A stretch of DNA of 64,000 bases from Closterium sp. NIES-65 (lineage: Eukaryota; Streptophyta; Zygnematophyceae; Desmidiales; Closteriaceae). The notes beneath the pieces were generated by a model. The model was given only the letters and a program-made list of their open reading frames with translations. It made no database searches and was not told where the DNA came from. The stretch is taken from the NCBI GenBank assembly GCA_948144175.1, contig CANXME010002672.1, positions 62,001-126,000 of the forward strand. The letters are read 5' to 3'. Positions 42,014 to 64,000 of this stretch are shown in pieces. The translations under genes and the position numbers were made by a program. How positions within the stretch are numbered: the first letter of the stretch is position 1; the number at the start of each line of letters is the position of its first letter.

Positions 42014-42164
42014 ATCATAATTGAGTTTGGTGAAGTTTTCACGCGGGACTTTTCGTCGACAACGCTTCTTGTGAATTTGACGTTTCTGGCCAGAGTTATA
42101 GACCAGCGATTTTGTGTTAATTCAGTCCCTGATCTTCATAGACTCCGTCCTTAGTCTCTAACAG
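42014..42164. other. Unique spacer between element F and satellite array 2
   Basis: 151 bp with no recognised feature. Together with 34303-34343, 25865-26032 and 18189-18639 it is what remains of the pre-insertion spacer (about 0.8 kb). Confidence 0.5.
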
Positions 42165-44364: not shown

Positions 44365-47300
44365 ATGCTGTCGCGAAGGCAAGCCTCGGGATTCGCGCGG
44401 TTACTGGCGTCGTCAGCGCTGCGTGTGTTCCCGCTCGTGGATGGTCATGGTGAGACGATCCGGAACCAGCTCGATAGTCCATTCGATATCTGTCACTCGA
44501 CTTTACAAAGCCGCGAGATTTCTCACTCGTGTGTGTGCATGGGAAACAATGCCAAGACTTAGTTCTTGTATTGTTAACTCGGCCTTCAAGTCGTGGGGAG
44601 GCACTGAGTGGTTCTCCCGTTAGTGGCCGTTCATGTTAAGCCCGGATAGACTTTGATTGGACGATCTCATGGGACGAACGGATGAGACGATTTGATGTCG
44701 CGATCTCATAGACGCGCGTCTTTGATGGCGATCCGGGTTTCGAGGCGCCTCTAGAGTCATCTGATAAACGGGTGAATTGTAGCTTATTCTGAAGATGACG
44801 CTCGGTTTTGTTGACGATCCGGAATAGATCCGGAATAGACAGGTTCGGGTGAATTGTAGCTTATTCTGAAGATGGCGTTTCCTTGTTGATTGTCCCGTGA
44901 GATACAGCTCAGTACTTTCGCAATGGAACGCCCTCCGCCGTCCGCAGTACAAGGGAAGGGTGAAAGGCAGCAAAGCACTGCGAAAGCACTGCGAAGGGTT
45001 TCGCACTGTCACGTCCTCCGCCGTCCTCCATTCCTCAGCCCTATCTCTCTCCCCGCATTCTCGACTCGCAGGGACCTCCGCTGTCAGCAGCAGCGCTGGC
45101 GATCTGTCTCCATCCATCGCCAGCCGCACTGCGACGTCACTCGCGGTTCGCAGCAGCGTCGCCGCGCGCGGCCCTGGCGGTCGCTCGTCCGTCAGGTGAG
45201 CGGCGAGTCTCAAGCTACAGCCAAGACTGCCTCTTTTCCCGTTGTTTGCGCGGCCCTGGCGGTCGCTCGTCCGTCAGGTGAGCTCGCCGCGTCTGCAGCG
45301 ACTTTCGAGTCGACTCAAAGTTGATTCCTGACTGTCTGTATGAGTATCAAGATATTCTACATTCTCGTTTTTCTTTAAGGACCTGCTTGCTGCTAGCTCT
45401 CCCCCAGCACGTGTTTAAAGATTGGTTTTGAGGCGTCTCAAAATCAATCTTCTATCACGTGATGCCTGCCTGTCTGATATTTTACCCCCGCCTCACCCTT
45501 CCTAGGTGACTTTTGAGTCGACTCAAAAGTCAAATCAATCTTCTATCACGTGATGCCTGCCTGTCTGATATTTTACCCCCGCCTCACCCTTCCTCCCCCT
45601 TGCCCCCACCCCCCCTGCATGCGTAATTTGAAATTCCCTCCCTGCAGTGGCATGGTTGCGACTGTGTTTGGCGCCACGGGCTTTCTGGGGAGATACGTGG
45701 TGCAGCAGTTAGGTAAGAGAAACCCTTACTATAAAACTTCTGGTAGCTGGTTTGGTACTCCCTGCAGTGGCATGGTTGCGACTGTGTTTGGCGCCACGGG
45801 CTCTCTTGGGAGATACGTGGTGCAGCAGTTAGGTGAGTGAAGCACTTACAAGGTGGAGAGATCATGCAACAGTCTTTGTCCCATCGACTTTTGAGTCGAC
45901 TCATAAGTCCACTTACAAGTGGAGAGATCTTACAAGGTGAAGCAACAATCTTTGTCCTTCGATTGTGCAATCTTCAGATTCGAATCTGAAGTCGCAATGG
46001 ATGGTGCCCTGTCATCTGCCATCGCCTTTGTTTCCCTTTTCCGCTCGTTCCCTTCAGTCCTGTCATCAACCCACCCGCCGCCGTCTCCCCGCCTCCACTA
46101 TCTTTCCTTCTCCCCCCACAGCCCGCTCGGGTTCCCAGGTGATGGTACCCTACCGCTGCCTGGGGGATGGTCACAGGCACCTCTTTCGAATCCTTGTATA
46201 TCCCCTCCGTATAATTCCCCTCCCTCCCCTTCCTCTCCTGCCCTCTCATTCTTTCTCCCTCGCAGCCCGCTCGGGTTCCCAGGTGATGGTGCCCTATCGC
46301 TGCCTGGAGGACGACCACAGGCACCTCAAGCTGTGCGGGGACCTGGGGCAGGTGAGGCATGGGGAAGGTGACACGTGAGGCAGGTTGAACTGGGGCCGGG
46401 TGGGGTATGGGACAGGGGTATGGTGCCCTATCGCTGCCTGGAGGACGACCACAGGCACCTCAAGCTGTGCGGGGACCTCGGGCAGGTGGGATATGGGGCA
46501 GGTGGGATGAGGGGGAAGGTAATATATGGGCTAGGTGGGCTGTGAGTCAGGAGCCTGGAGGACGACCACAGGCACCTCAAGCTGTGTGGCGACCTCGGGC
46601 AGGTGGGATATGGGGCAGGCAAGATCTGGTGAGGTATGGGGCAGGTGAGCCGAGGTCTGGGGCAGGTTGATTTGAAGCATTGCTGCTGGGATCGCTTGTT
46701 CGGCTGTCATTCACGCGTTCCTTATATATACCTATGTTCCGTCTCTCCTTCCTCCTGAGCCTCTCTTCTTGATCAGGTGGTCCCCATTGTACCGATCTTC
46801 CATTGCCCGCGTCCCTTACCCTTTCCTTCTCCCGCCCTTTCCCGCGTCCCTTACCCTTTCCTTCTCCCGCCCTTTCCCGCGTACCTTACCCTTTTCTTCT
46901 CCCGCCCTTTCTCACCAGGTGGTGCCCATGCCGTTTGACGTTAGGAGCGATGAGAGCATTGCTGCGGCTATTGCCAAGTCGAATGTTGTCATCAACCTCA
47001 TTGGTCAGTGGTGGATGTGTTCTCAACATGTCTTCGAATTCGAGTTCTTGTATGCATCTTAATATAAATATATGGAACATAAATAACCATATACGTTGAA
47101 GCAAACATTTGCTCATGCCTCTCCTGCCCTCTCTTCTGGCCCCTCTCCTCTCTCCTCGTCTCCCCTCTTTGTCTCATCTGCACTCCCTCGTTTCCTCCCT
47201 ACCCCACCCACCCAGGTCGTGACTTTGAGAAGCGCAATTTCAGCTGTGAGGACATCAACATCTCAGCGCCTATCTCCTCCCCTCCTCCCTCCCCCTCTCT

Positions 47301-50300
47301 GCTCCCATTTCCTTTCCTCCTCTGCTCCCCACCCCACCCAGGCCGTGACTTTGAGACGCGCAACTTCAGCTTCGAGGACATCAACATCTCTGCACCGCAG
47401 CGCATTGCCAGGGTGAGCTGACTTGGAGATTGGAGCTGGCCTGAGTTGGCCTGAGTTGACCTGAGTGACCTGCGTTGACTTGTGTTGACCTTCATTGACC
47501 TGGGCTGTATGAGTCAACTTCAGCTTCGAGGACATCAACACCTCAGTGCCTCAGCGCGAGGACATCAGCACCTCATTGCCTCAGCGCGAGGACATCAACA
47601 CCTCAGTGCCTCAGCGCGAGGACATCAACACCTCAGTGCCTCAGCGCGAGGACATCAACACCTCAGTGCCTCAGCGCGAGGACATCAACACCTCAGTGCC
47701 TCAGCGCGAGGACATCAACACCTCAGTGCCTCAGCGCGAGGACATCAACACCTCAGTGCCTCAGCGCATTGCCAGGGTGAGACAAGATGACGCTCCTTCC
47801 CCTTCTTTCAAACCAACCCCCATTCCTCTGCCAGATCGCCAGGGAGCATGGGGGCATCGCACGCCTGCTCTGCTGCACCTTCCCTGCCTGGGCACTGCCC
47901 CCCGCACTCTCATACCTCCACTCAACTTACCACCCTTTCCCGCTTTCCATGTGCACTTTTTTTCCTCTTTCCCCCTACACCTTCATCAGATCGCCAGGGA
48001 GCATGGGGGAATCACACGCCTGGTGCACCTCTCCTGCCTGGGCTCCGCCCCCCGCACTCCAATTCTTCCACTCTTCTCGCTCTTTCCCTCTTTCCCTCTT
48101 TCCCCTCTACTCCTTTCACAGATCGCCAGGGAGCATGGCGGCATTGCAAGGATGGTCCACCTCTCCTGCCCGGGCGCTGCTCCCCTCACTCTTATTCCTC
48201 CACTTATTTCCCCCTTTCCGCATTCTCTTTTTGTCAGATCGCCAGGGAGCATGGCGGCATTGCAAGGATGGTCCACCTCTCCTGCCCGGGCGCTGCTCCC
48301 CTCACTCTTATTCCTCCACTCAATTCCCCCTTCCCGCATTCTCTTTTTGTCAGATCGCCAGGGAGCATGGCGGCATTGCAAGGATGGTCCACCTCTCCTG
48401 CCCGGGCGCTGCTCCCCTCACTCTTATTCCTCCACTCAATTCCCCCTTCCCGCATTCTCTTTTTGTCAGATCGCCAGGGAGCATGGCGGCATTGCAAGGA
48501 TGGTCCACCTCTCCTGCCCGGGCGCTGCTCCCCTCACTCTTATTCCTCCACTTATTTCCCCCTTTCCGCATTCTCTTTTTGTCAGATCGCCAGGGAGCAT
48601 GGCGGCATTGCAAGGATGGTCCACCTCTCCTGCCCAGGCGCTGCTCCCCTCACTCTTATTCCTCCACTCAATTCCCCCTTCCCACATTCTCTTTTTGTCA
48701 GATCGCCAGGGAGCATGGCGGCATTGCAAGGATGGTCCACCTCTCCTGCCCGGGCGCTGCTCCCCTCACTCTTATTCCTCCACTCAATTCCCCCTTCCCG
48801 CATTCTCTTTTTGTCAGATCGCCAGGGAGCATGGCGGCATTGCAAGGATGGTCCACCTCTCCTGCCCGGGCGCTGCTCCCCTCACTCTTATTCCTCCACT
48901 TATTTCCCCCTTTCCGCATTCTCTTTTTGTCAGATCGCCAGGGAGCATGGCGGCATTGCAAGGATGGTCCACCTCTCCTGCCCAGGCGCTGCTCCCCTCA
49001 CTCTTATTCCTCCACTTATTTCCCCCTTCCCACATTCTCTTTTTGTCAGATCGCCAGGGAGCATGGCGGCATTGCAAGGATGGTCCACCTCTCCTGCCCG
49101 GGCGCTGCTCCCCTCACTCTTATTCCTCCACTCATTTCCCCCTTCCCGCATTCTCTTTTTGTCAGATCGCCAGGGAGCATGGCGGCATTGCAAGGATGGT
49201 CCACCTCTCCTGCCCGGGCGCTGCTCCCCTCACTCTTATTCCTCCACTCATTTCCCCCTTCCCGCATTCTCTTTTTGTCAGATCGCCAGGGAGCATGGCG
49301 GCATTGCAAGGATGGTCCACCTCTCCTGCCCGGGCGCTGCTCCCCTCACTCCTATTCCTCCACTTATTTCCCCCTTTCCGCATTCTCTTTTTGTCAGATC
49401 GCCAGGGAGCATGGCGGCATTGCAAGGATGGTCCACCTCTCCTGCCCGGGCGCTGCTCCCCTCACTCTTATTCCTCCACTTATTTCCCCCTTTCCGCATT
49501 CTCTTTTTGTCAGATCGCCAGGGAGCATGGCGGCATTGCAAGGATGGTCCACCTCTCCTGCCCAGGCGCTGCTCCCCTCACTCTTATTCCTCCACTCAAT
49601 TCCCCCTTCCCACATTCTCTTTTTGTCAGATCGCCAGGGAGCATGGCGGCATTGCAAGGATGGTCCACCTCTCCTGCCCGGGCGCTGCTCCCCTCACTCT
49701 TATTCCTCCACTCAATTCCCCCTTCCCGCATTCTCTTTTTGTCAGATCGCCAGGGAGCATGGCGGCATTGCAAGGATGGTCCACCTCTCCTGCCCGGGCG
49801 CTGCTCCCCTCACTCTTATTCCTCCACTTATTTCCCCCTTTCCGCATTCTCTTTTTGTCAGATCGCCAGGGAGCATGGCGGCATTGCAAGGATGGTCCAC
49901 CTCTCCTGCCCAGGCGCTGCTCCCCTCACTCTTATTCCTCCACTTATTTCCCCCTTTCCGCATTCTCTTTTTGTCAGATCGCCAGGGAGCATGGCGGCAT
50001 TGCAAGGATGGTCCACCTCTCCTGCCCAGGCGCTGCTCCCCTCACTCTTATTCCTCCACTCATTTCCCCCTTCCCACATTCTCTTTTTGTCAGATCGCCA
50101 GGGAGCATGGCGGCATTGCAAGGATGGTCCACCTCTCCTGCCCGGGCGCTGCTCCCCTCACTCTTATTCCTCCACTCATTTCCCCCTTCCCACATTCTCT
50201 TTTTGTCAGATCGCCAGGGAGCATGGCGGCATTGCAAGGATGGTCCACCTCTCCTGCCCGGGCGCTGCTCCCCTCACTCTTATTCCTCCACTTATTTCCC

Positions 50301-52351
50301 CCTTTCCGCATTCTCTTTTTGTCAGATCGCCAGGGAGCATGGCGGCATTGCAAGGATGGTCCACCTCTCCTGCCCGGGCGCTGCTCCCCTCACTCTTATT
50401 CCTCCACTCATTTCCCCCTTCCCACATTCTCTTTTTGTCAGATCGCCAGGGAGCATGGTGGCATTGCAAGGATGGTCCACCTCTCCTGCCCGGGCGCTGC
50501 TCCCCTCACTCCTATTCCTCCACTTATTTCCCCCTTTCCGCATTCTCTTTTTGTCAGATCGCCAGGGAGCATGGCGGCATTGCAAGGATGGTCCACCTCT
50601 CCTGCCCGGGCGCTGCTCCCCTCACTCTTATTCCTCCACTCATTTCCCCCTTCCCGCATTCTCTTTTTGTCAGATCGCCAGGGAGCATGGCGGCATTGCA
50701 AGGATGGTCCACCTCTCCTGCCCGGGCGCTGCTCCCCTCACTCTTATTCCTCCACTCATTTCCCCCTTCCCGCATTCTCTTTTTGTCAGATCGCCAGGGA
50801 GCATGGCGGCATTGCAAGGATGGTCCACCTCTCCTGCCCGGGCGCTGCTCCCCTCACTCCTATTCCTCCACTTATTTCCCCCTTTCCGCATTCTCTTTTT
50901 GTCAGATCGCCAGGGAGCATGGCGGCATTGCAAGGATGGTCCACCTCTCCTGCCCGGGCGCTGCTCCCCTCACTCTTATTCCTCCACTCATTTCCCCCTT
51001 CCCGCATTCTCTTTTTGTCAGATCGCCAGGGAGCATGGCGGCATTGCAAGGATGGTCCACCTCTCCTGCCCGGGCGCTGCTCCCCTCACTCTTATTCCTC
51101 CACTCATTTCCCCCTTCCCGCATTCTCTTTTTGTCAGATCGCCAGGGAGCATGGCGGCATTGCAAGGATGGTCCACCTCTCCTGCCTGGGCGCTGCCCCC
51201 CACGCGCCCTCCAAGCAGCACCAGACCAAGGCGCTGGGGGAGGCAGCAGTATTGTCGGAATTCCCACAGGTGAGTGGTGTGAGGGCTTTTCACGCTCGTT
51301 TCTATCTAGGGGGGTTCGCTGTTCAGGTTCAGGGTCTAGGGTTTAGGGAGTAATGCCCCCGTCCTGCATGGGCGCTGCTCCCCACGCGCCCTCCAAGCAG
51401 CACCAGACCAAGGCACTGGGGGAGGCAGCTGTGGAGTTCCCACAGGTGAGTGGTTTGAGGGCTTAATACTGTCAGTCAGTTCAAGGGGGGTTCTTGGGTC
51501 AGGTTCATGGTCTTGGGTTTAGGGAGTCATATCCTTGTCTGCTCCCCACGCGCCCTCCAAGCAGCACCAAGGCGCTGGGAGAGGTGGCTGTACTGGCTGA
51601 ATCTCCACAACCACAGGCGAGTAGGGTGGGGCCCAAGGGGTGAAGTTGGGGTTTGTGACTCTCTGGGAGTAGGACTCTCACAAAGTAAGGCGATAGTTCA
51701 GAAGCACCATGAGCCATGGTCAATTTCGGTGCTCATGGCGAAGAAGCTTTGTCCTCTGCCTGCCCTGTGTCTCCACACCGCCACGTCTCCATCCCCTTTC
51801 CCTCCCCTGTCCTTGCCCCTGTCACCAGGCCACATTCTGAGGACTGGTCCGCTGGCAGGCACGGAGGACCGCCTGCTCAACAGCTGGGCTGGGCGCTCAA
51901 GGGGAAAAAGCTCGTACCCTCTTCTGCTCCTCCCTTCACTCAACTCGTGTTTCCTCTGTGCACCCTTACCACCAGGCCACCATCCTGCGGACTGGTCCCT
52001 TGGCAGGCACGGAGGACCGCCTGCTCAACAGCTGGGCGCTCATGGCCAAGAAGTTCCCGTTTGTCCCCGTTATAGCAGGCGGCAAGACTCTGTAAGTGGC
52101 GTTATAGTGTAGATTCATAGTTTGTCCCCGTTATAACAGGGGAAATACACTGTTGATGGCGTTACGATGTAGATTGATTCCCAGTTTGTCCCGTTATAGC
52201 AGGCGACAAGAGACTTCAATTCCAGAAACCACACATTAACTTATTCTGTACATAAATTCCCCTTGTACTCCCTCTCTCCCCACCACCAGCATTCAACCCG
52301 TGCACGTGTTGGCAACAGCAGTCAACACCACATTAGTCTTGGCCTCCTTCC

Positions 52352-52446
<95 letters not shown>

Positions 52447-55031
52447 GATATCCTCCCCTCCCTTTTCCCCCACCAGTATCCAGCCAGTGTAAGTGCTGCA
52501 GGTGGCAACAGCAGTCAACGCCACCGTCACTGACCATGGCAGCGCCTGTTACCCTTGGTGTTTGCAAGCCCTCTCTTATCCTTGCCCTCGCCTCCCCCTC
52601 TTTCCTTGCCCCCCACCCCCAACCGGGATCCAACCGGTATATGTGCTGGACGTGGCAACAGCAGTCAACGCCACCGTCACTGATTATGGCAGCAGCTGAT
52701 GTCAATGTTTCAACTCATCCCTTCTATTTCTCACCTTTCCCCCTTTTTTCCCCACCAGCATTCAGCCGGTATACGTGTTGGACGTGGCAACAGCAGTCAA
52801 TGCCACTGTGACTGACGACGGCAGCAGCTGCGGGCAAACGTACGAGCTGGGTGGGCCAGAAGTGCTGCAAATCAGGGACCTGGTGAGTTGAGTTGCAACA
52901 GCCGGGCTGTAAGGCGTTTAGGATTGGATTGTACGAACTGGTAGAGCCTCAGTCATAACAGGGTACTGATGACCGCAGTAGCTGTGTGGGTAAACGTACG
53001 AGCTGGGGGGACCAGAGGTGCTGCAAATCAGGGACCTGGTGAGTCTGGATTCAACACCTGTACTTGATGGTGGTAGCAGCAGGCAGCACCTGCGCACAGC
53101 TGCACTGTGAATTGGAAACCATTCGCCAGCACTCCTCCATTCTCAGCGTCCCTCCTCCTTCTCCTCCCCTGCCCCCTCCCTCCTCCTCCCACCTTCCCCT
53201 CTCCTTCCTCCCTCCCTCCCTTCTCCCTTCTCCCTTCTCCCTTCTCCCCTTCACAGGTGAACCGTGTCTTGGAAACCATTCGCCAGCACTCCTCCATTCT
53301 CAGCGTCCCTCTTCCTGTCGCCCGGGTGAGTGCGCGGTGCAAATAGGTTGAGGAGTGGTGTGTGAAAGTTAGAAGAAAGAAGAAGGATTGCACTAGCAAG
53401 AATGGGGATACAAATAGGAAACCCTAGAAGGGTTGTACTCGCTATAGAGCACCCCACTACAGGCTAGAGCATAAGATAACATTCTGACATGGTGTACATA
53501 AGATGGCGAGTGGTGCAGGTGGTGGGTGGGGCAATGAGTAGCTGAGCACTCTCCTCAGCACTCTTCATTTCGCAGCATCCCACTTCTTTTCACTTGGGTG
53601 GGTGCATGGATGCTTTGTGCATGGAGTGGGATTTCCCACGGACGCCATCCCACTGGATTTCCCACTCCACCGCCCATGGATGCTCAGGACGCCCATGATT
53701 CCCATGGCTCCTGCCTATTCCCCTCCCCATTCCCTCCTCCCCCCCCCATACCTCCCCTTCTGCACCCTCTATTCCCCCCCCCCCTTAGGCCCTCGCCACC
53801 CCACGGGAGTTTCTCCTCCACCGCGTGCCAACGCCCATCCCCAGCCCCACCATGTTCACGCTCGACTACATCAACTCCCTCTCCTTCCCCCACATTGTCT
53901 CGCCCAACGGTACGCCCACACTCTCTTGGTATCTTGTTCTGGGCTTCCAAAGCCCGACAGTAAGCCTCGTATCATCTGCGGGAGGAGGCATTTCACAACA
54001 CCTTGCAACGTTTATCCCCAGCCCAACCATCTTCATGGTCGATTACATCAACTCCCTCTCCTTCCCCCACATCGTCTCGTCCTCCTCCCGTCCTCAGTAA
54101 CTGTGTCTTTGCGTCCCAGGGGTCACCCTGACTCATGTTTCGAAGGGCTGCAGTAGCAGAGAGGACGCTTAAGCAAAGGAACAAACAGTGAAAACTGGTG
54201 AAAAAAAAACGCAGTCCTCCTCCCGTCCTCAGTAACTGTGTCTTTGCGTCCCTCTCTGGCCTTCTCCCCGTTCCCCCTCTTCACAGCGCTCACTTTCAAC
54301 AACGTTGCGATCATCCCGCACCCTCTCACGGACCTGGTTTTTTAGACTTCTCAAAAACAAGCTCTCACAGCCCTCACAATCAACTATCTCTTTGCTTACC
54401 TTGTCCGCCCTTCCTTGTCTTCACTACCTCATTTACAGTCTCTTTGCGTCCCACTCTTGTCTTTTCCCCCACCCTTCTCCCCCCAGCGCTCACGTTCAAG
54501 GACCTTGGGATCATCCCGCACCCGCTCACGGGCCTCACAATTGACTACCTCTTTGCTTATCGCAGCGGCGGGCCGCAGTACGGCCAGACTGTCGGCGAGA
54601 ATGTGTCTGGCGCTGGCGTCTGGTCACTGAACCCAAATACTTGTTCCCTTGGTCTTTCTCCCCCTCCCCCCCCCCCCCCCCCCCGCCCCCCAGCGCTCAC
54701 GTTCAAGGACCTTGGGATCATCCCGCACCCGCTCACGGGCCTCACAATTGACTACCTCTTTGCTTATCGCAGCGGCGGCCCGCAGTACGGCCAGACTGTC
54801 GGCGAGAAGGTGTCTGGCGCTGGCGTCTGGTCACTGAACCTAAATACTTGTTCCCTTGGTCTTTCTCCCCCTCCCCCCCCCCCCCGCCCCCCAGCGCTCA
54901 CGTTCAAGGACCTTGGGATCATCCCGCACCCGCTCACGGGCCTCACAATTGACTACCTCTTTGCTTATCGCAGCGGCGGGCCGCAGTACGGCCAGACTGT
55001 CGGCGAGAAGGTGTCTGGCGCAGGCTTCTAG
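44365..55031 (+). CDS. NDUFA9: NADH:ubiquinone oxidoreductase 39-kDa subunit (NDUFA9), mitochondrial complex I
   Basis: Proposed exons: 44365-44449, 45072-45195, 45648-45712, 46266-46351, 46919-47003, 47342-47412, 51138-51269, 51976-52091, 52759-52882, 53257-53325, 53789-53909, 54895-55031. All introns are GT-AG, every phase matches, and the total of 1215 nt gives 404 residues plus TAG, the usual plant length. Residues 1-28 (MLSRRQASGFARLLASSALR...) are Arg/Ser/Ala-rich without acids, as in a mitochondrial targeting peptide. The atypical short-chain dehydrogenase fold begins GGRSSVSGMVATVFGATGFLG; the dinucleotide loop GATGFLG is residues 78-84. VINLIG, RNFSFEDIN, EHGGI, SCLGA, GTEDRLLNSW, QPVYVLDVA and YELGGPEV follow, all typical of NDUFA9. 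The subunit binds NADPH and stabilises the arm-membrane junction of complex I. Exons 1-2 are inferred from splice phase and composition; exons 3-12 from clear family similarity. Nearly every exon has partial copies in adjacent introns. Confidence 0.93.
45166..45283 (+). repeat. Duplicate of NDUFA9 exon 2 end with its splice donor
   Basis: The 36-bp end of exon 2 plus GTGAGC (45166-45201) recurs at 45248-45283, 82 bp downstream, with an intact second donor at 45278. Use of the second donor would shift the frame because 82 is not a multiple of three. Confidence 0.85.
45417..45451. repeat. Imperfect palindrome around TTTTGAGGCGTCTCAAAA
   Basis: A 35-bp imperfect inverted repeat (AAGATTG ... CAATCTT arms) with a GGCGTC centre. 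It lies at the left edge of the 62-bp duplication 45442-45594 and is related to the palindrome family of this region. Confidence 0.7.
45442..45594. repeat. 62-bp direct repeats flanking a 24-bp perfect palindrome
   Basis: 45442-45503 and 45533-45594 appear identical. Between them lies a 29-bp filler containing TTTTGAGTCGACTCAAAA with GAC/GTC ends (palindrome 45508-45531). In intron 2 of NDUFA9. Confidence 0.92.
45768..45832 (+). repeat. Second copy of NDUFA9 exon 3
   Basis: A full 65-bp copy of exon 3, 120 bp downstream of the first, with its own CAG acceptor and GTGAGT donor. It codes GATGSLG instead of GATGFLG. Exon 3 enters in phase 2 and leaves in phase 1, so joining both copies would shift the frame; only one can be used. 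The upstream copy fits the family motif better. Confidence 0.88.
45844..45957. repeat. Direct repeats flanking a palindrome (one mismatch)
   Basis: An ACTTACAAGGTGGAGAGATC-type segment at 45844 recurs in altered form at 45911, with the palindrome TTTTGAGTCGACTCATAA (45886-45909, one mismatch) between them. The right copy has an internal extra segment. In intron 3 of NDUFA9. Confidence 0.8.
45972..45991. repeat. 20-bp perfect palindrome CTTCAGATTCGAATCTGAAG
   Basis: Same length class as the neighbouring palindromes but different sequence with a TTCGAA centre. No clear flanking direct repeat. Confidence 0.7.
46122..46192 (+). repeat. Decayed copy of NDUFA9 exon 4
   Basis: Begins after a CACAG acceptor with CCCGCTCGGGTTCCCAG, then diverges (GGGGGATGG in place of GGAGGACG) and loses similarity before a donor. 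The functional copy begins at 46266. Confidence 0.8.
46418..46607 (+). repeat. Two further 3' copies of NDUFA9 exon 4
   Basis: 46418-46487 and 46556-46607 repeat the GACGACCACAGGCACCTCAA part and the donor-side GGGCAGGTGGG, without an acceptor. They lie in intron 4. Confidence 0.8.
46807..46911 (+). repeat. 35-bp polypyrimidine repeat x3 before NDUFA9 exon 5
   Basis: Three units of a CCCGCGTCCCTTACCCTTTC-type motif multiply the pyrimidine tract ahead of the acceptor at 46916-46918. A short decayed copy of the exon 5 start (GGTGGTCCCCATTGTACCG) precedes it at about 46776. Confidence 0.8.
47220..47278 (+). repeat. Diverged first copy of NDUFA9 exon 6
   Basis: Has an acceptor (CCACCCAG) and codes GRDFEKRNFSCEDINIS, with no donor at the normal place. 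The copy at 47342-47412 matches the family motif RNFSFEDIN and has the donor GTGAGC. Confidence 0.8.
47516..47774 (+). repeat. 30-bp tandem array derived from NDUFA9 exon 6
   Basis: About eight 30-bp units coding EDINTSVPQR, starting from a third copy of exon 6 and ending with CGCATTGCCAGG and a GTGAGA donor, exactly as the real exon ends. The frame is open throughout. No good acceptor precedes it, so it is probably intronic. Confidence 0.88.
47835..48121 (+). repeat. Two diverged copies of NDUFA9 exon 7 start
   Basis: Copies of the acceptor plus IAREHGGI-coding start at 47835 and 47990, more diverged than the array that follows. Spacing is 155 and 132 bp. Confidence 0.85.
48122..51137 (+). 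repeat. 116-bp tandem array of NDUFA9 exon 7 acceptor plus exon start (26 units)
   Basis: 26 units of exactly 116 bp run from 48122 and end at the true exon 7 (51138). Each unit holds about 60 bp of exon 7 (IAREHGGIARMVHLSC coding), a pyrimidine-rich stretch and the acceptor TTTTTGTCAG, but no GT donor. Units differ at a few diagnostic positions (ACTTATTT/ACTCAATT/ACTCATTT, CCGGGC/CCAGGC). All three forward frames are open across the array (the long forward frames reach 1141-1266 codons). These are not separate genes. The array lies in intron 6, 3.7 kb long. Confidence 0.95.
51368..51617 (+). repeat. Two downstream copies of NDUFA9 exon 7 end
   Basis: 51368-51446 repeats the CACGCGCCCTCCAAGCAGCA part and the donor CACAGGTGAGT. 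51540-51617 repeats it with internal deletions and a weaker donor (CAGGCGAGT). Both lie in intron 7. Confidence 0.85.
51829..51899 (+). repeat. Partial upstream copy of NDUFA9 exon 8
   Basis: Starts after CACCAG and codes the GPLAGTEDRLLNSW block, then diverges. The true exon 8 begins at 51976. Confidence 0.85.
52290..52714 (+). repeat. Three partial upstream copies of NDUFA9 exon 9
   Basis: Copies start near 52290, 52477 and 52629. Each has the IQPV-coding start and the GCAACAGCAGTCAACGCCAC segment, and each is truncated or carries stops. A copy of the donor-side end is at about 52977-53045, within intron 9. Confidence 0.85.
52355..52446 (+). repeat. (AC)37(AT)9 microsatellite
   Basis: Dinucleotide run in intron 8 of NDUFA9, AC from 52355 to 52428, then AT to 52446. 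Confidence 0.95.
53117..53157 (+). repeat. Partial upstream copy of NDUFA9 exon 10
   Basis: Repeats GGAAACCATTCGCCAGCACT and the following bases of exon 10. A more decayed third copy is at about 53548-53605. Confidence 0.75.
53361..53489 (-). mobile_element. Solo LTR in NDUFA9 intron 10
   Basis: 129 bp related to the LTR of element E (minus-strand TGTCAGAATG start; shares the AAACCCTA and CACCCCACTACAG segments). It is flanked by a perfect 5-bp target duplication TGGTG (53356-53360 and 53490-53494). No internal element sequence remains, as expected after recombination between the two LTRs of an inserted element. Confidence 0.88.
53991..54100 (+). repeat. Downstream copy of NDUFA9 exon 11
   Basis: Repeats the CCCAGCCCAACCATCTTCAT to CACATCGTCTCG part of exon 11 with changes. 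In intron 11. Confidence 0.8.
54286..54894 (+). repeat. Extra copies of the NDUFA9 terminal exon
   Basis: A decayed copy starts near 54286. Two nearly complete copies start at 54487 and 54694, each behind a CCCCAG acceptor, 207 and 201 bp before the next. In both, the terminal codons read GCGTCTGG instead of the stop-bearing GCTTCTAG, and the frame stays open into the next copy. Splicing to either would give a longer protein with two or three copies of the C-terminal block (ALTFKDLGIIPHPLTG onward) separated by a Pro-rich link. Confidence 0.88.
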
Positions 55032-55377
55032 GCTCTGAGATGCAAACCTGTTGCTTCTTAGAAAAGTATTTGGGTAATTCATCTGGAATGTCTGGCGCTG
55101 GCTTCTAGTTTCTAGTGTCTTGTGCTGGTTAGAGAAATAAGCTGCCGAAAGTAATTTCGCCTTTTTAATCATCAGCAAATTGGCTGTAAGGAAATTCTAC
55201 AAATTCATTAAGGCGTATGTTCTCACCCTGACGCAGTTAACGAAAGCGAGCTAGCTGTAACGCGTATATGCTGTATTTTTCATTCGCAGCACAATCCCTC
55301 TCGCGGATATCTTTTCAGTTGTGGTTTATCGCGCAAGTAGAGAGCTCAGCATTTTGGTCTGCGCCAATTCCGCCACC
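55032..55377. other. Intergenic region between NDUFA9 and NOL
   Basis: 346 bp with the NDUFA9 3' UTR and the NOL promoter/5' UTR. It contains a short copy of the NDUFA9 exon end (GTGTCTGGCGCAGGCTTCTAG at 55011-55031, repeated in part at 55089-55109). No core promoter motif is certain. Confidence 0.5.
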
Positions 55378-58300
55378 ATGGCCGCCACCATCAACGCTTC
55401 GCTCGCAGCAATCTCCGCGAAAGCCGCTACTCCCTCGAGCCTGGCGTCGCCTGCCACGTGGCAAAAACGTGTTGGTCCTTCGACGGCGTTCGTCGCACGC
55501 GGTCAGCCGCTTCCTTCGTCGCTCGCCTCTCGTCGCATTCCCGTGGCGCCTGCGACGAATGCGGGCGCGTGCGACCGCCGAGCGACGGCGCTTCGCGTCG
55601 TCGCCTCAGCCGTGAGCGACAAGCCTGCCACAGCGGCGACTCCTGGCGGCGGCGCGGGAGTTGGCAAGTCGTACAACGTCGTCGTTACGGGATCGACTAA
55701 AGGTTAGGCCCGCCGTCTGTAGCTTGGTTTGAATGGGCTCACCATTACGACAGGGGCTGCATCGCGTTTGGACTCGATAACAAGCGGCCACTAAGGAGTC
55801 AATTCTCCACCCAAATTCTCTGCCCTTCTTGTCCCCTTCTTCTCCCTCCACCATCCTCACCCGTCCCCTCCCCTCCCCTCCCTCCCCTCCCCTCCTCCTT
55901 TTCCCTCTTTCCCCCCTCCCTACATTCCACTCATCTCCTCTCCCATCCCCAAGGCATCGGCCTGGCATTGGTGTGCGAGTTTCTGAGGGCGGGCGGCAGA
56001 GTCGTTGGGGATCGTGGTGGTGATCTCTGAATGACGTGATCCGTGTTACTCATTTGCTCCCCCTTGCCTATTTCCCCCTTCCCCCCTCCTCTCCCCCCTC
56101 TCCCATCCCCAAGGCATCGGCCTGGCATTGGTGCGCGAGCTTCTGACGGCGGGTGACAGAGTCGTGCTGGTGGTGGTGGCGGTGGTGGTGGTGCTTTTGG
56201 GTTCTTATTTGTCTTCCCACTGCCTGCTTCCCCCTCCCCCCCATTCTCCCCAACCCCATATCCTCTCTCCCCCACCTATACAAGGCATCGGCCTGGCATT
56301 GGGGCGTGAGTTCCTGAGGGCGGGAGACAGAGTCGTCGTGGTAATGGTGGTGGTTAGTTAGTTTGTCCCTGTGTTCCTATTTGCTGCCCCTTGTATTTTC
56401 GTATCCTTGCGTGTTTCCTCCACCCTTCCTCCCCATTCAAGGCATCGGCCTGGCATTGGTGCGTGAGTTCCTGAGGGCGGGAGACAGAGTCGTGGTGTGC
56501 TCACGATCAGGTGAGAGCGTTGGAGTGTGGTGTTGTGCGGTGGAGCGTGGTTGAACACAGTGTGTTTGTGATCTGGCATTGGTGCCGCGCGACTTCCTGA
56601 GGGCGGGAGACAGAGTCATGGTGTGCTCGCGATCAGGTGAGAGGAATAGAGAGTAGTGAAGTGCGGTGGCGTGTGGTGGTGTGTGGTTGAACACACAGAG
56701 TCGTCGTGTGCTCACGACAAGGTGAGAGGAGTAACGTGTGCGGTTGTGTGTGGTGGTACGTGGTTGAGAACCCAGGAACGCAATGGTGTGCTTGCGTTGC
56801 AACCTTGCCCTGCTTTCAGGACCCGTTGACTTTTGAGTTGACTCCCGTTGACTTTTGAGTTGACTGAAAAGCCAAAATGCTGATGCCCTGAAAATTCATA
56901 TCGGAGGGCCTGAATTTCCGTCTTTGCCCTTTTGTCTTTGCTTGCCTTCTTTCCCTTTCTCGTCTTTGTCTTATGTGAGAGCAGGGGAGAGGGTGGATGA
57001 TGTGGTTGCTCAACTGCAGAAGGAGTTTGGCAAAGAGAACGTGGTGGTGAGTGGCGGAGAGTGGTCGAGAGTGGTCTGTGCGTCCTGTATGCATGGCGTG
57101 AGTGAGAGCAGGCGAGAGGGGACTTTTGAGTACACTCCAAAGGCACTGAGCAGGCGAGAGGAGACTTTTGAGTACACTCCAAAGGCACTGAGCAGGGGAG
57201 AGGAGACTTCTGAGTACACTCCAAAGGCACTGAGCAGGGGAGAGGAGACTTCTGAGTACACTCCAAAGGCACTGAGCAGGGGAGAGGAGACTTCTGAGTA
57301 CACTCCAAAGGCACTGAGCAGGGGAGAGGAGACTTCTGAGTACACTCCAAAGGCACTGAGCAGGGGAGAGGAGACTTCTGAGTACACTCCAAAGGCACTG
57401 AGCAGGGGAGAGGAGACTTCTGAGTACACTCCAAAGGCACTGAGCAGGGGAGAGGAGACTTCTGAGTACACTCCAAAGGCACTGAGCAGGGGAGAGGAGA
57501 CTTCTGAGTACACTCCAAAGGCACTGAGCAGGGGAGAGGAGACTTCTGAGTACACTCCAAAGGCACTGAGCAGGGGAGAGGAGACTTCTGAGTACACTCC
57601 AAAGGCACTGAGCAGGGGAGAGGAGACTTCTGAGTACACTCCAAAGGCACTGAGCAGGGGAGAGGAGACTTCTGAGTACACTCCAAAGGCACTGAGCAGG
57701 GGAGAGGAGACTTCTGAGTACACTCCAAAGGCACTGAGCAGGGGAGAGGAGACTTCTGAGTACACTCCAAAGGCACTGAGCAGGGGAGAGGAGACTTCTG
57801 AGTACACTCCAAAGGCACTGAGCAGGGGAGAGGAGACTTCTGAGTACACTCCAAAGGCACTGAGCAGGGGAGAGGAGACTTCTGAGTACACTCCAAAGGC
57901 ACTGAGCAGGGGAGAGGAGACTTCTGAGTACACTCCAAAGGCACTGAGCAGGGGAGAGGAGACTTCTGAGTACACTCCAAAGGCACTGAGCAGGGGAGAG
58001 GAGACTTCTGAGTACACTCCAAAGGCACTGAGCAGGGGAGAGGAGACTTCTGAGTACACTCCAAAGGCACTGAGCAGGGGAGAGGAGACTTCTGAGTACA
58101 CTCCAAAGGCACTGAGCAGGGGAGAGGAGACTTCTGAGTACACTCCAAAGGCACTGAGCAGGGGAGAGGAGACTTCTGAGTACACTCCAAAGGCACTGAG
58201 CAGGCGAGAGGGGACTTCTGAGTACACTCCAAAGGCACTGAGCAGGGGAGAGGAGACTTCTGAGTACACTCCAAAGGCACTGAGCAGGGGAGAGGAGACT

Positions 58301-60480
58301 TCTGAGTACACTCCAAAGTCACTGAGCAGGGGAGAGGAGACTTCTGAGTACACTCCAAAGTCACTGAGCAGGGGAGAGGAGACTTCTGAGTACACTCCAA
58401 AGGCACTGAGCAGGGGAGAGGAGACTTCTGAGTACACTCCAAAGGCACTGAGCAGGGGAGAGGAGACTTCTGAGTACACTCCAAAGGCACTGAGCAGGGG
58501 AGAGGAGACTTCTGAGTACACTCCAAAGGCACTGAGCAGGGGAGAGGAGACTTCTGAGTACACTCCAAAGGCACTGAGCAGGGGAGAGGAGACTTCTGAG
58601 TACACTCCAAAGGCACTGAGCAGGGGAGAGGAGACTTCTGAGTACACTCCAAAGGCACTGAGCAGGGGAGAGGAGACTTCTGAGTACACTCCAAAGGCAC
58701 TGAGCAGGGGAGAGGAGACTTCTGAGTACACTCCAAAGGCACTGAGCAGGGGAGAGGAGACTTCTGAGTACACTCCAAAGGCACTGAGCAGGGGAGAGGA
58801 GACTTCTGAGTACACTCCAAAGGCACTGAGCAGGGGAGAGGAGACTTCTGAGTACACTCCAAAGGCACTGAGCAGGGGAGAGGAGACTTCTGAGTACACT
58901 CCAAAGGCACTGAGCAGGGGAGACGGCGGACGATGTGGTTGCTCAACTGCAGAAGGAGTTTGGCAAAGAGAACGTGGTGGTGAGTGGTGGGGTGGGGAGT
59001 GGTGGGGAGTGGTGGAGAGTGGTGGAGAGGATTGTGTGTCAGATCATCCGGCCAGTTAATTCCCCGATTGAATTCCTCAATTCCCTCAGCTCGCTGTAGT
59101 GCTGTGCTGTACCATCACTTCCCCCCTTCACCCCCTTATCCTACCCCACTCCTTCCCACCCCATCCCACCCCACCCCACCCCACCACATCCTTTCTCAAC
59201 CGTCAGCATCCTCCTTAACCCAAAGCACCGAATGCGATGTCTTTAGAAAGGACAACGTCAAGCTCACTCTGCTGTCCAGTCAACTCATCAGACCCACTTG
59301 ACCCTCTCCCTCTTGTTGCTTGTTCCTTTCTGTCGCATACCATCTGTGTTTCGAGGTGACTTTTGAGTCGACTCAAAAGTCATCTCTTGTAACGTGTTCC
59401 TTTCTGTGGGATGCCATCTGTGTTTCCCCTCCACCGCTGCTCATCCCGTCCGGTCCCACTCTACCCTACCCCACCGCACGCCAACCCACACCACCTCACT
59501 CCACTCCAGGGCACCGCATGCGATGTGTCTAAGGCGGGGGGTGTGAAGGCGCTGGGTGATCTTGCTTGCTGTCAGTCCAGTTTTGAGACAACTCATACGC
59601 ACTAAACCCTATCCCACCGATTCTCACCCCACTTCACCCTTTCCCACTCCAGGGCACCGCATGCGATGTATCTAAGGCAGAGGATGTGAAGGCTCTGGCT
59701 GAATTTGCTGTCAAATCACTTGGATCCGTGGATGTGTGGGTGAGTTGACTAAGTTGACTCGTGTTGACGCAAGTCGATCTGACTAATCTCAAATCACTTG
59801 GATCCGTGGATGTGTGGGTGAGTTGACTTGACATAAATTGCGCTGACCTGAGTTGACCTGAGTTGACCTGGGAGCTGGCTCTCCTGTATACTCACCACGC
59901 ATGTATTAGTTAGGCGCCTAAAACATCGTCTGTGTGGGAGCCTTTCCTGTCCACTCTGCACGCATGCATTCTGTCTTACCTGCATGCGCTCATGTAACTT
60001 CTCCCTGCATGCTTGTGTGTGTGTGCGTGTGTGCACGCATGTGTTATTGATGCACCTCAAAAATCGTCTGTGTGGGAGCCTTTCCTGTCCACTCTGCACG
60101 CATGCATTCTGTCTTACCTGCATGCGCTCATGTAACTTCTCCCTGCATGCTTGTGTGTGTGTGCGTGTGTGCACGCATGTGTTATTGATGCACCTCAAAA
60201 ATCGTCTGTGTGGGAGCCTTTCCTGTCCACTCTGCACGCATGCATTCTGTCTTGCCTGCATGCGCTCATGTAACTTCTCCCTGCATGCTTCTGTGCGTGT
60301 GCGCGCGCGTGTATGTCTGTGTGTGTGCATGCGTGTGTGTGCGTGTGTGCGTGTGTGCGTGTGTGTGTGCGTGTGTGTGTGCGTGTGTGTGTGCGTGTGT
60401 GTGTGTGTGTGTGTGCGTGTGTGCGTGTGTGCGTGTGTGTGTGCGTGTGTGTGTGCGTGTGTGTGTGCGTGTGTGTGTGT

Positions 60481-60564
<84 letters not shown>

Positions 60565-63500
60565 ATGCACGCGTGTGCATGTGTGCATGGGTGGGCGCAT
60601 GGCAGATCAACAATGCAGGCTCCAACGCGTATGAGTACGCTCCTTTGGTGGAGGCGGGAGATGCGGCCTTAGAGTGAGTGAGAGGAGGGATTAGAGTGAC
60701 ACAGGGGAACGGGAGGGGAGGTTCACGAGGCTCCAACGCGTATGAGTACGCCCCCCTGGTGGAGGCGGGAGATGCAGCCATAGAGTGAGTGAGCACAGGG
60801 AGAGTAGAGAAGAGTGGGAGTGGGCATGGGGCATGCCTGTGGTGCATCAGGCTCCAACGCATATGAGTACGCCCCCTTAGTGGAGGCGGGAGATGCTGCT
60901 TTAGAGTGAGTGAGCACAGGGAGTGTGGGATAGCCTTCAAGTGAGGGGAGATTAGGGGAGAGGGAGTGGGAGGTAGAATCATGCAGGCTCCAACGCGTAG
61001 GAGTACCCCCCCCTAGTGGAGGCAAGGGATGCCGCTTTAGAGTGAGAGAGCGCAAGCAGTGAGGGAACGGCAAAATGCCTAACATAGTGCTTCCCCATGA
61101 TTAGGGCTCCCAACGCGTACGAGTACGCTCCTTTGGTGGAGGCAGGGGATGCGGCTATCGAGTGAGTGAGCACCGGGAGTGTGGGATAGCCACAGAGGGA
61201 GGAGGGGAGGGGATGTGATGTGAGGTGCAGGCTCCAACGCGTACGAGTATGCTCCTTTGGTGGAGGCGGGAGATGCGGCCTTAGAGTGAGTGGGAGGAGG
61301 GAAGGATGGGTATTGAGAACTGATGGGATGAAATGAAGCCAAGGAGGGCAGGGCAAGTGCGTTTCATAGGGCTGTCTTTTGAATCGACTCAAAAGTCACC
61401 AGGAGGGCAGGGGAAGTGCGGTTCATAGGGCTGTCCAATGCGTGTGAGTGCGCCCCTTTGGTAGAGACAGGCTCATGCAGGCTCCAACGCATATGAGCGC
61501 GCTCCGTGAGTGGAGACGGGAGAGGGTGTAGAGTGAGTGGGGAAGATCAGGGAACAGCCATATAGTGAGTAAGTGCAAGAAGAGAGGTTCATTGGGCTGT
61601 CGGTCCAACCCAACGTGTGTATTCATAGGGCTGTTCAACGTGTGTGAGTACGCTCCTTTGGTGGTGGCGGGCGATGCGGCTTGAGAGTGAGTGAATCTGC
61701 AGGGAGGGATCGGGAACACAGAAATAAAGTGTTTTGAGACGTCTCAAAACATTTCTCCACTCAGATCTGCAGGGAGGGATCAGGAACACAGAAATATGAT
61801 GGGAAAGAATATTAGTACTGCAGGGAGGGATCGGGAACACAGAAATATGATGGGAAAGAATATTAGTACTGCAGGGAGGGATCGGGAACACAGAAATATG
61901 ATGGGAAAGAATATTAGTACTGCAGGGAGGGATCGGGAACACAGAAAGAAAGAAAGGGGGAGAAAGAGAGAGAGAGCTTGTTTTGACACGTCTCAAAACG
62001 TTGAGTGAGCGCACACAGGCAGGGAGCAGGAGGAGCGCAGGAGAAGACTTTTGAGTCGACTCAAAAGTCACCTCGGAGCAGGAGGAGCTCAGGAGAAAGC
62101 GGGAGAGGGAACGGTAAGTGCGGTTGTTTAGGCACCAACACGTATGCTGACTCTGTTGACTCTGCTGCCTCTGCTGTCCCCGTCTTTCTCTTTTCTTCCA
62201 CAGGGAGATCGTGCAAACCAACGCACTGTTGCTGTCATGCTGTGCTGCCGCCAGGCCATGCGACTCATGAGGGAGCAGCTCAGTACCCCGCACTGCCATT
62301 CCCCTTCCCCCGTCCCCTCCGACCACCCATCCCCTAACCCTCCCCTACACAGGGAAATAGTGCGAACCAACGTGCTGGGCGTCATGCTGTGCTGCCGCCA
62401 GGCCATGCGCCTCATGAGGGATCAACCCGGTGGGGTGGGGGGCTACTTGCAGTCTCCTGCTCATACCTTGCCCGTCCTCCTCTCTCCTCCATCCTATCCC
62501 CTCCCCCCTTTTAACAGGGAGATCGTGCGAACCAATGTGTTGGGCGTGATGCTGTGCTGCCGCCAGGCCATGCGCCTCATGCGGGACCAGCCTGGAGGGG
62601 GACACATTTTCAACATGGACGGGGCTGGGGCTGATGGGAATGCCACCCCGCGGTGAGTGCATGTGCTGCTCTGTCTGCCCTGCACTGTGAAGCAGCCCTA
62701 CATCTGTATCAAGTTGACTTTTGAGTCGACTCAAAAGTCAACTCCCTGCACTGTGAAGCAGTCCTACATCTGTATCAAGTTGACTTTTGAGTCGACTCAA
62801 AAGTCAACTCCCTGCACTGTGAAGCAGTCCTACATCTGTATCAAGTTGACTTTTGAGTCGACTCAAAAGTCAACTCCCTGCACTGTGAAGCAGCCCTACA
62901 TCTGTATCAAGTTGACTTTTGAGTCGACTCAAAAGTCAACTCCCTGCACTGTGAAGCAGCCCTACATCTCTATCACACACACACCATGCGCCTCATGAGG
63001 GACCAACCCGGAGGGGGCCACATATTCAACATGGATGGGGCTGGGGCCGACGGCAATGCCACCCCCCGGTGAGTATATTTGTATGGGTTGCTCAGTAGTG
63101 TGAAGCAGAGTCAGTGCTGCATCTGTGTCGCGCAGGACCGTGCTCTGAATTAGCCTCATGTTTTTGAGACGTCTCAAAATGCATCTGTGTCGCACACACT
63201 CCGTGCTCTGAATTAGCCTCATGAGGGAGCAGCCCGGAGGGGATCACATTTGCTTACCACCAAGCGCAGCCTGGCGCAGTTCACCAAGTCAACTCCAAGC
63301 CCCATTGTCGGCCTTCCTGTTCCCTCTCTACGATCCCTTCCCTCTATCAGCTTTGCAGCCTACGGAGCAACCACGCACTGCGTACCGCAGTTCACCAAGT
63401 CAACTCCAAGCAGAGCTGAAGATGTACCTTCACCTATTCCTCTTCTACCTTTCCTCCTTTCGGCTTACTCCCGCCACCAGCTTCGCAGCCTACGGAGCCA

Positions 63501-63728: not shown

Positions 63729-64000
63729 GTGAGCCTTGTGGTTGGTTGTGCACAACCTGTCGGTGAGCCTTGTGGTTGGTTGTGCACAACCTGTCGGTGA
63801 GCCTTGTGGTTGGTTGTGCACAACCTGTCGGTGAGCCTTGTGGTTGGTTGTGCACAACCTGTCGGTGAGCCTTGTGGTTGGTTGTGCACAACCTGTCGGT
63901 GAGCCTTGTGGTTGGTTGTGCACAACCTGTCGGTGAGCCTTGTGGTTGGTTGTGCACAACCTGTCGGTGAGCCTTGTGGTTGGTTGTGCACAACCTGTCG
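63729..64000 (+). repeat. 34-bp tandem array of NOL exon 7 end plus splice donor (eight units)
   Basis: Period 34 bp from 63729 to the window edge. Each unit holds GTGAGCCTTGTGGTTG followed by GTTGTGCACAACCTGTCG, the last 18 bases of exon 7. The donor is therefore repeated at every unit. Each unit also has a 14-bp palindrome GGTTGTGCACAACC. Confidence 0.93.

What the first reader, a model, noticed from the sequence alone, without database searches (positions are those of the whole stretch)
45417..63223. Micro-palindromes sit exactly between the two copies of local tandem duplications
Seen directly: at seven separate places (45442-45594, 45844-45957, 59311-59426, 61342-61435, 61695-61796, 62023-62097, 63118-63223) and in the four-unit array 62678-62974, an 18-32 bp palindrome with core TTTTGAGTCGACTCAAAA or TTTTGAGACGTCTCAAAA lies between direct repeats of 23-62 bp. 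The repeats are unrelated between sites and the palindrome is shared. This is the structure expected of a tiny mobile palindrome that makes long, variable target duplications, or of break repair that captures a palindromic oligomer between duplicated ends. I know of no described element of this kind. Both explanations are inference.
Basis: partly seen in the sequence, partly recalled or inferred. Interest (0 to 1): 0.9.

Follow-up and report, generated by a model that had tools for sequence, protein, structure and literature searches.

The report
Tiny mobile palindromes duplicating alga DNA
In the nuclear genome of a single-celled green alga (Closterium), a palindrome as short as about 18 letters appears to have inserted itself in many places, usually leaving tens of letters of the surrounding DNA duplicated on its two sides, which matches no kind of mobile DNA that I know of.

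Summary
All seven sites and the array are as described. The 874-Mb assembly has 24,964 exact matches to TTTTGAG-NCGN-CTCAAAA and none to the reversed control. In the window plus 20 fetched 10-kb stretches, 26 of 28 isolated copies have direct repeats within 30 nt of the core, against 10.7% of 1,500 random positions. Repeats are 16-75 bp, median 31 (16-71, median 29, without five ill-bounded sites). Three insertions have a readable paralog across the site; all three paralogs carry one repeat and no palindrome. Those are insertions with target duplication. Lone half-cores are rare: trimming spares the core while arms vary. Main centres are self-complementary (59 of 64). Twelve of 141 tandem arrays carry the core with up to 2 mismatches, 16 with up to 4, in partly selected DNA. 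Best reading: a non-autonomous palindromic micro-element inserted at widely staggered nicks by an unidentified activity. Capture of a palindromic oligomer in break repair is the main rival. The own-genome search did not complete, so genome-wide follow-up is missing.

The parts
45408..45461 (.). Longest palindromic copy (CACGTG ends, core TTTTGAGGCGTCTCAAAA at 45426-45443); no own duplication found; its right arm starts the repeat of the next site
45441..45503 (.). Left copy of 63-bp target duplication
   Evidence: 63/63 identical to 45532-45594
45504..45531 (.). 28-bp palindromic insert, TCGA class (AGGTGAC-core-GTC), core 45511-45528
45532..45594 (.). Right copy of 63-bp target duplication
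45843..45881 (.). Left copy of diverged duplication (end set by eye)
   Evidence: gapped, aligned to 45869
45882..45909 (.). Palindromic insert, one substitution in core (45889-45906)
45910..45957 (.). Right copy of diverged duplication, with an internal indel (end set by eye)
   Evidence: gapped, aligned to 45935
57106..58923 (.). 42-bp minisatellite, 43 copies; unit resembles a decayed TCGA-class palindrome (3 mismatches); descent is inferred
59310..59352 (.). Left copy of 43-bp duplication (86% identical)
59353..59383 (.). 31-bp palindromic insert, core 59361-59378; left arm reads TCGAGGTGAC
59384..59426 (.). Right copy of 43-bp duplication
61342..61376 (.). Left copy of 35-bp duplication
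61377..61400 (.). Palindromic insert, one substitution in core (TTTTGAATCGACTCAAAA)
61401..61435 (.). Right copy of 35-bp duplication
61695..61726 (.). Left copy of 32-bp duplication
61727..61764 (.). 38-bp insert, ACGT class, core 61732-61749
61765..61796 (.). Right copy of 32-bp duplication
62023..62045 (.). Left copy of 23-bp duplication
62046..62074 (.). 29-bp palindromic insert, TCGA class, core 62049-62066
62075..62097 (.). Right copy of 23-bp duplication
62678..62975 (.). Array of 66-bp units (34-bp target unit + 32-bp perfect palindrome), four palindromes
63118..63160 (.). Left copy of about 43-bp duplication
   Evidence: gapped
63161..63179 (.). 19-bp insert, nearly the bare ACGT core
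63180..63223 (.). Right copy of about 43-bp duplication
   Evidence: gapped

Best explanation
These are copies of a non-autonomous palindromic micro-element of the Closterium nuclear genome. SHOWN in the sample: a copy consists of an 18-bp core TTTTGAG-NNNN-CTCAAAA (main centres TCGA, ACGT, GCGC, AATT) plus outer arms of variable remaining length, and most isolated copies lie between direct repeats of tens of bp. At three sites with a readable paralog, the unoccupied copy has one repeat and no palindrome. Some copies have expanded together with one repeat unit into tandem arrays. INFERRED: an activity supplied in trans nicks the two strands tens of nucleotides apart. The palindrome, bound at its two half-sites (probably by a symmetric dimer, so that the core is protected while the arms are trimmed), is joined to both ends. 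Filling in the long single-stranded gaps makes the duplication. Symmetric but variable arms suggest that one half is copied from the other in the intermediate (hairpin or dimer).
For: 24,964 exact matches against control 0. Empty sites with one repeat and no palindrome: 3 of 3 readable sites (L022:7972 vs L019, L029:1165 vs L029:759-827, L021:8300 vs L021:8781 and 9033, which look like copies of each other). Core intact: the half-core TTTTGAGTCG comes with its other half (up to 2 mismatches) in 81 of 84 occurrences, TTTTGAGACG 39/40, TTTTGAGGCG 36/37, TTTTGAGAAT 9/9 (both strands counted, so each palindrome counts twice). Self-complementary centre in 59 of 64 exact-arm cores, array units included. 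In the ACGT class an outer ACGT lies exactly 13 nt from the core in 8 of 36 arms; the 53-bp insert at L034:4567 has it on both sides. Mirrored arms: identity 60/74 within an element against 235/358 between elements of a class, n=13 elements. Recent activity: repeat copies 100% identical at L021:5806, L021:8300, L023:2338, L029:1165 and window 45511.
Against: No enzyme or autonomous partner was identified or searched for. The length and variability of the duplications fit no transposase that I know. Other half-sites are less clean: GACTTTTGAG has its partner in 64 of 75 (six or so of the 11 exceptions are in one L024 array) and TTTTGAGTTG in 4 of 6. Some inserts carry extra non-palindromic bases (window 61727-61764, L034:4434), as repair fillers do. 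Duplications without the palindrome also exist: 12 with no spacer (one of them itself a palindrome unit, L020:3819) and 54 with other spacers against 45 with the palindrome, in 219 kb partly chosen for palindromes. Decayed cores show duplications less often (8 of 18 with one mismatch, 4 of 7 with two). The arm-symmetry difference is modest and includes a poor case (L020:5041, 6 of 13). No strain comparison was possible.
Confidence: 0.6

Rival explanations
1. Repair filler: paired nicks make breaks with long 5' overhangs, end joining fills them in (tandem duplication), and an abundant palindromic double-stranded oligomer is captured at the junction. No dedicated transposition enzyme.
For: Paired nicks with 46-nt overhangs give tandem duplications in mouse cells, and the same is cited for Arabidopsis (passages of PMC5730883). 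Duplications with other or no fillers occur here too. No strong target motif. Extra bases at some junctions.
Against: One sequence family supplies 45 of 111 two-copy repeats in 219 kb, though that DNA was partly chosen for palindromes. Random capture should yield many half or broken cores; for the four core half-sites few are seen. I know of no natural abundant 18-mer duplex.
Confidence: 0.22
2. Twin-primed reverse transcription: both 3' ends of a pair of nicks prime copying of the same small RNA, and the two cDNA tails anneal by the self-complementary core. The palindrome is then made at the site.
For: Would explain intact cores, truncated arms, self-complementary centres and long variable duplications.
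Against: Arms of one element can agree with each other while differing from other copies (L024:4292 12/13), which needs the same RNA species at both ends. Left and right arm lengths are not independent in the TCGA class (Spearman 0.40, n=38). Rfam matched nothing at the palindromes in the six sources searched. No tail sequence seen.
Confidence: 0.1
3. The palindrome was there first and provoked duplication of its neighbour by slippage or template switching.
For: Arrays of unit plus palindrome exist (12 of 141 arrays with up to 2 mismatches in the core).
Against: Paralogous empty sites lack the palindrome at 3 of 3. By eye, the right repeat copy of isolated sites is not followed by a second palindrome.
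Confidence: 0.04
4. Assembly or adapter artefact.
For: Centres with their neighbours resemble restriction sites such as GTCGAC, GACGTC, GGCGCC and GAATTC (recalled).
Against: Copies show graded decay of core and duplications, four main centre classes, and array expansion.
Confidence: 0.02

Closest known systems
REPINs / REP sequences with RAYT transposases (bacteria; passages of PMC3116915)
   Same: Very short palindromic interspersed units; inverted pairs are the proposed unit; compensatory changes in the variable part; tandem clusters
   Different: Bacterial; no long target duplications in the passages read; here nuclear, an 18-54 bp duplex palindrome with duplications of tens of bp
GC clusters (GC42) of yeast mitochondria (passages of PMC4478555)
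   Same: Mobile palindrome of about 42 nt; empty sites with a single target copy
   Different: Mitochondrial, GC-rich, 2-3 bp flanking repeats (AG or ACT)
MITEs / DNA transposons (recalled)
   Same: Inverted repeats, target duplications, high copy number
   Different: No interior; minimal unit about 18 bp; duplications long and variable instead of a fixed 2-11 bp
Target-primed insertions of LINEs and SINEs (recalled)
   Same: Variable target duplications
   Different: No 3' tail seen, no one-sided truncation into the core; no RNA gene features known
Paired-nick tandem duplications (passages of PMC5730883)
   Same: Same duplication geometry; 46-nt overhangs give comparable duplications
   Different: No recurrent palindrome at the junction in the passages read
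SIRC of Arabidopsis (passages of PMC10342631)
   Same: Short direct repeats interrupted by other DNA
   Different: There some repeats recur and spacers are of low copy number; here the spacer recurs and the repeats are unrelated
CRISPR spacer acquisition (recalled)
   Same: A short duplex is integrated and about 30 bp of target is duplicated
   Different: Fixed single target, fixed repeat length, prokaryotic

Membership tests
MITE / DNA transposon | Target duplication of a fixed short length (recalled) | tested here: not met
   16-75 bp, median 31, n=26; 16-71 without five ill-bounded sites
MITE / DNA transposon | Terminal inverted repeats around an interior (recalled) | tested here: not met
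   The inverted halves meet at a 4-bp centre; inserts can be 19-21 bp
MITE / DNA transposon | Insertion, with empty sites in relatives or paralogs | tested here: met
   3 of 3 readable paralogs
LINE/SINE target-primed insertion | 3' tail, poly-A or simple repeat (recalled) | tested here: not met
   Insert sequences listed, read by eye
LINE/SINE target-primed insertion | Variable-length target duplication | tested here: met
LINE/SINE target-primed insertion | Random 5' truncation (recalled; common, not obligatory) | tested here: not met
   Core half-sites rarely alone
REPIN | Associated RAYT transposase | not tested
   No search of the genome for such a transposase was made
REPIN | Bacterial replicon | tested here: not met
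   All 120 listed best hits of the window's Copia protein are Closterium; extended 24-mer absent from the prokaryote genome collection
Yeast-type GC cluster | 2-3 bp target duplication in mtDNA | tested here: not met
   Contigs of an 874-Mb assembly, window with retrotransposon ORFs; duplications of tens of bp
Paired-nick repair tandem duplication | Single copy before, tandem copies after | tested here: met
Paired-nick repair tandem duplication | Filler, if any, local or random (my expectation, not a published criterion) | tested here: not met
   The same palindrome family at 45 of 111 two-copy repeats, in regions partly selected

The most novel reading that the evidence does not exclude
The Closterium nuclear genome hosts a dedicated integration system for palindromic micro-elements as small as 18 bp. 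It cuts targets with a stagger of tens of nucleotides, needs only the TTTTGAG-N4-CTCAAAA core, and rebuilds symmetric arms by copying one half onto the other. It has produced thousands of insertions and is a major source of new short tandem duplications and minisatellites.
Probability: 0.45. Interest if true: 0.93.

Novelty: categorically new. Interest (0 to 1): 0.86.

Why it matters
A mobile sequence often smaller than the duplication it creates would lower the minimum size that I know for a eukaryotic nuclear mobile element, and would imply an integration or repair activity with a very wide stagger. It also suggests a concrete route for the birth of minisatellites: one insertion makes a two-copy repeat with a hairpin-prone spacer, which then expands. 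Because several Closterium strains have been sequenced and some can mate (passages of PMC10407611), both mechanism and rate are directly testable.

Tried and rejected
Chance: rejected by shuffles and by the reversed-pattern control. Prokaryotic or viral origin: the 24-mer GACTTTTGAGTCGACTCAAAAGTC has 0 hits in IMG/VR and 0 in the GTDB genome collection; TTTTGAGTCGACTCAAAA has 0 and TTTTGAGACGTCTCAAAA 1 (L001) in IMG/VR, the latter taken as chance and not studied. Known RNA family: in the six sources searched (window, L021, L022, L028, L029, L036) only one tRNA, none at the palindromes. Target-site motif: none evident by eye in base counts at n=26; not tested statistically. Random truncation into the core: not what one search shows for the four core half-sites, though GACTTTTGAG lacks its partner in 11 of 75. 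Independence of arm lengths: left and right arm lengths correlate moderately in the TCGA class (Spearman 0.40, p=0.013, n=38); mixed subfamilies may cause this; not resolved. Outer TCGA at 6 nt in the TCGA class: only 3 of 76 arms, suggestive only. The 13-nt count for the GCGC class comes mainly from one array (L024) and was not used.

Selection and dropped rows. L017-L036 were chosen because they hold matches listed first, so rates per kb, the share of repeats with palindrome and the share of arrays are biased upward. In one search, 30 of 58 exact cores had another exact core within 200 bp and were left out of the 28. With the stricter rule (no core with up to 2 mismatches nearby), 22 of 25 exact, 8 of 18 one-mismatch and 4 of 7 two-mismatch isolated sites have a duplication. 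Repeat boundaries are from an ungapped search limited to 30 nt from the core. Five of 26 left boundaries sit at or next to that limit, and gapped repeats such as window 63118-63223 come out too short (23 instead of about 43). In one search, 4 of the 16 arrays have 3-4 mismatches and may be unrelated. In one search, two of the 54 'other spacer' rows (L025:621, 727) have the core inside the repeat, and one of the 12 'no spacer' rows (L020:3819) is a palindrome unit. In one search the spanning matches of window array units, L020:5041 (28-bp satellite), L024:5377 (array) and the 35-bp L028 match were dropped as ambiguous. L024:4292 was dropped because its left flank did not align. L019:5001 against L022 was too diverged to read. 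The number of empty-site queries was not printed.

Literature: eight searches of the held library showed no description of such an element in the titles and abstract starts listed; several listings were capped (10 of 117, 20 of 31, 10 of 85). Most subscription papers are not held. Only passages of PMC10407611, PMC4478555, PMC10342631, PMC3116915 and PMC5730883 were seen.
Full report
Where it is. The window is G000:C2374:62001-126000 of an 874,075,685-bp assembly in 2,400 contigs. All 120 listed best hits of its Copia-type polyprotein are named Closterium (68-97% identity over 31-59% of the query; 8,000 candidates scored). ORFs at 10327-13125, 26960-30616 and 35770-40797 carry Copia-type domains. 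The last 19 kb has exon-like stretches. One, at 62144-62656, matches short-chain dehydrogenases, and I recognise NOL-like and NDUFA9-like exons by eye (recalled, not tested). I take this as nuclear DNA of this zygnematophycean alga.

Observation. All seven sites and the four-palindrome array are present with the stated geometry. Window 44701-64000 holds 11 centres of perfect palindromes of 18 bp or more (0.12 expected from 50 dinucleotide shuffles), 9 of them with this core, and 10 exact cores; window 1-44700 has none.

Genome scale. The pattern TTTTGAGNCGNCTCAAAA has 24,964 exact matches on each strand, the same sites since it is its own complement, and the reversed control none. Array units are included in that count. 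In the window plus L017-L036 (20 stretches of 10 kb chosen because they hold listed matches, not for their flanks) there are 58 such cores, 48 of them in L017-L036. Twenty-eight have no other exact core within 200 bp. Of these, 26 have direct repeats starting within 30 nt of the core (score 14 or more), against 10.7% of 1,500 random positions from the same DNA, a control inflated by satellites; at score 20 or more it is 20 of 28 against 8.7%. Repeats of the 26 are 16-75 bp, median 31; inserts as bounded by the search are 19-64 bp. Five left boundaries sit at or next to the 30-nt limit; without them the range is 16-71 and the median 29. No strong base preference is visible at either boundary. 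Ungapped identity of the repeat copies runs from 75 to 100%, so ages differ and several sites are recent. Decayed cores keep a detectable duplication less often: 8 of 18 with one mismatch, 4 of 7 with two, against 22 of 25 exact under the same rule.

Empty sites. Three insertions lie in locally duplicated sequence, so a second copy of the surroundings exists. L029:1165 has 16-bp repeats around a 28-bp insert; the paralog at L029:759-827 reads straight through with one 16-bp copy. L021:8300 has 60-bp repeats; the paralogs at L021:8781 and 9033 have one copy. L022:7972 has 20-bp repeats; the paralog in L019 has one copy. All three readable cases therefore show insertion plus duplication of a previously single target. 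Other spanning matches were ambiguous and were dropped (listed under Tried and rejected).

Anatomy. Cores with exact TTTTGAG and CTCAAAA have the centres TCGA 32, ACGT 15, GCGC 10, AATT 2 and five others, 59 of 64 self-complementary, array units included. TCGA copies have arms trimmed from GGTGAC, in a few cases from TCGAGGTGAC; some have other arms. ACGT copies have longer arms ending near CACGTG at a fixed distance: an outer ACGT 13 nt from the core in 8 of 36 arms, on both sides of the 53-bp insert at L034:4567. The 12-nt variable part differs between ACGT copies, yet the two arms of one copy can agree closely (L024:4292, 12 of 13; window 45426 less well). Over 13 elements bounded by repeats, arm identity is 60/74 within and 235/358 between elements, a modest difference. 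The core is rarely halved: partners present in 81/84, 39/40, 36/37 and 9/9 for the four main half-cores, but GACTTTTGAG in 64/75 and TTTTGAGTTG in 4/6. Complex inserts include extra head-to-tail half units (L030:953, L026:4207).

After insertion. Of 141 tandem arrays with 19-200 bp units in L017-L036 and window 44.7-64 kb, 12 contain a core with up to 2 mismatches and 16 with up to 4 (0.1 expected for up to 4 with shuffled units). This DNA was partly chosen for cores, so the share is not a genome average. The 43-copy, 42-bp minisatellite at window 57106-58923 (3 mismatches) is a probable descendant. New insertions may reuse old palindromes: the repeats of window 45511 and L028:4616 start inside an older palindrome, two anecdotes only.

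Mechanism. The duplication geometry fits two nicks tens of nucleotides apart on opposite strands followed by fill-in, as in paired-nick repair (passages of PMC5730883), or as in target-primed or integrase-type insertion. What is added is specific, symmetric and mostly intact at its core. I therefore favour a trans-mobilised palindromic micro-element; the enzyme and the intermediate are inferred, not seen. Oligomer capture by repair and twin-primed copying of a small RNA remain possible. Two-copy repeats without the palindrome are also common here: 12 without spacer and 54 with other spacers, many of them exon-like copies, against 45 with it.

Known systems. It works somewhat like bacterial REPINs and yeast mitochondrial GC clusters, but fails their defining features (compartment, size of target duplication). 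It fails MITE and SINE/LINE tests on target duplication, interior or tail. Eight library searches listed nothing of the kind; the Closterium genome paper PMC10407611 has 0 occurrences of 'palindrom' in its main text.

Limits. The sample is 264 kb from five contigs. The own-genome search did not complete, so further pattern counts, paralog searches and unselected sampling could not be done. No strain DNA was available.

Noticed in passing
window 60600-61300 and many fetched loci: Partial exon-like copies repeated with spacers of about 40-68 bp (for example the NOL-like exon, recognised by eye). They make up much of the 54 two-copy repeats with non-palindromic spacers.
   Followed up: partly
window 48119-51201: 116-bp unit repeated about 27 times at 97% matches.
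   Followed up: no
window 17419-18186 and 42164-42973: What looks like the same 181-bp unit repeated 4-5 times at two places in the retrotransposon-rich part.
   Followed up: no
window 45972-45991: Another 20-bp palindrome, CTTCAGATTCGAATCTGAAG, near site 45889 and resembling the family at several symmetric positions by eye.
   Followed up: no
L024:5165-5468 and L026:6743-6808: 24-bp satellites made almost entirely of the core (1-2 mismatches) plus a few bases.
   Followed up: partly
L021:3112-3275: Two palindromes of different classes (GCGC, ACGT) separated by the same repeat of about 40 bp, with repeat borders that coincide to within a few bp: either two insertions at one target or exchange of the palindrome within an array.
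   Followed up: no
L029:2437-2513: tRNA gene, minus strand.
   Followed up: no
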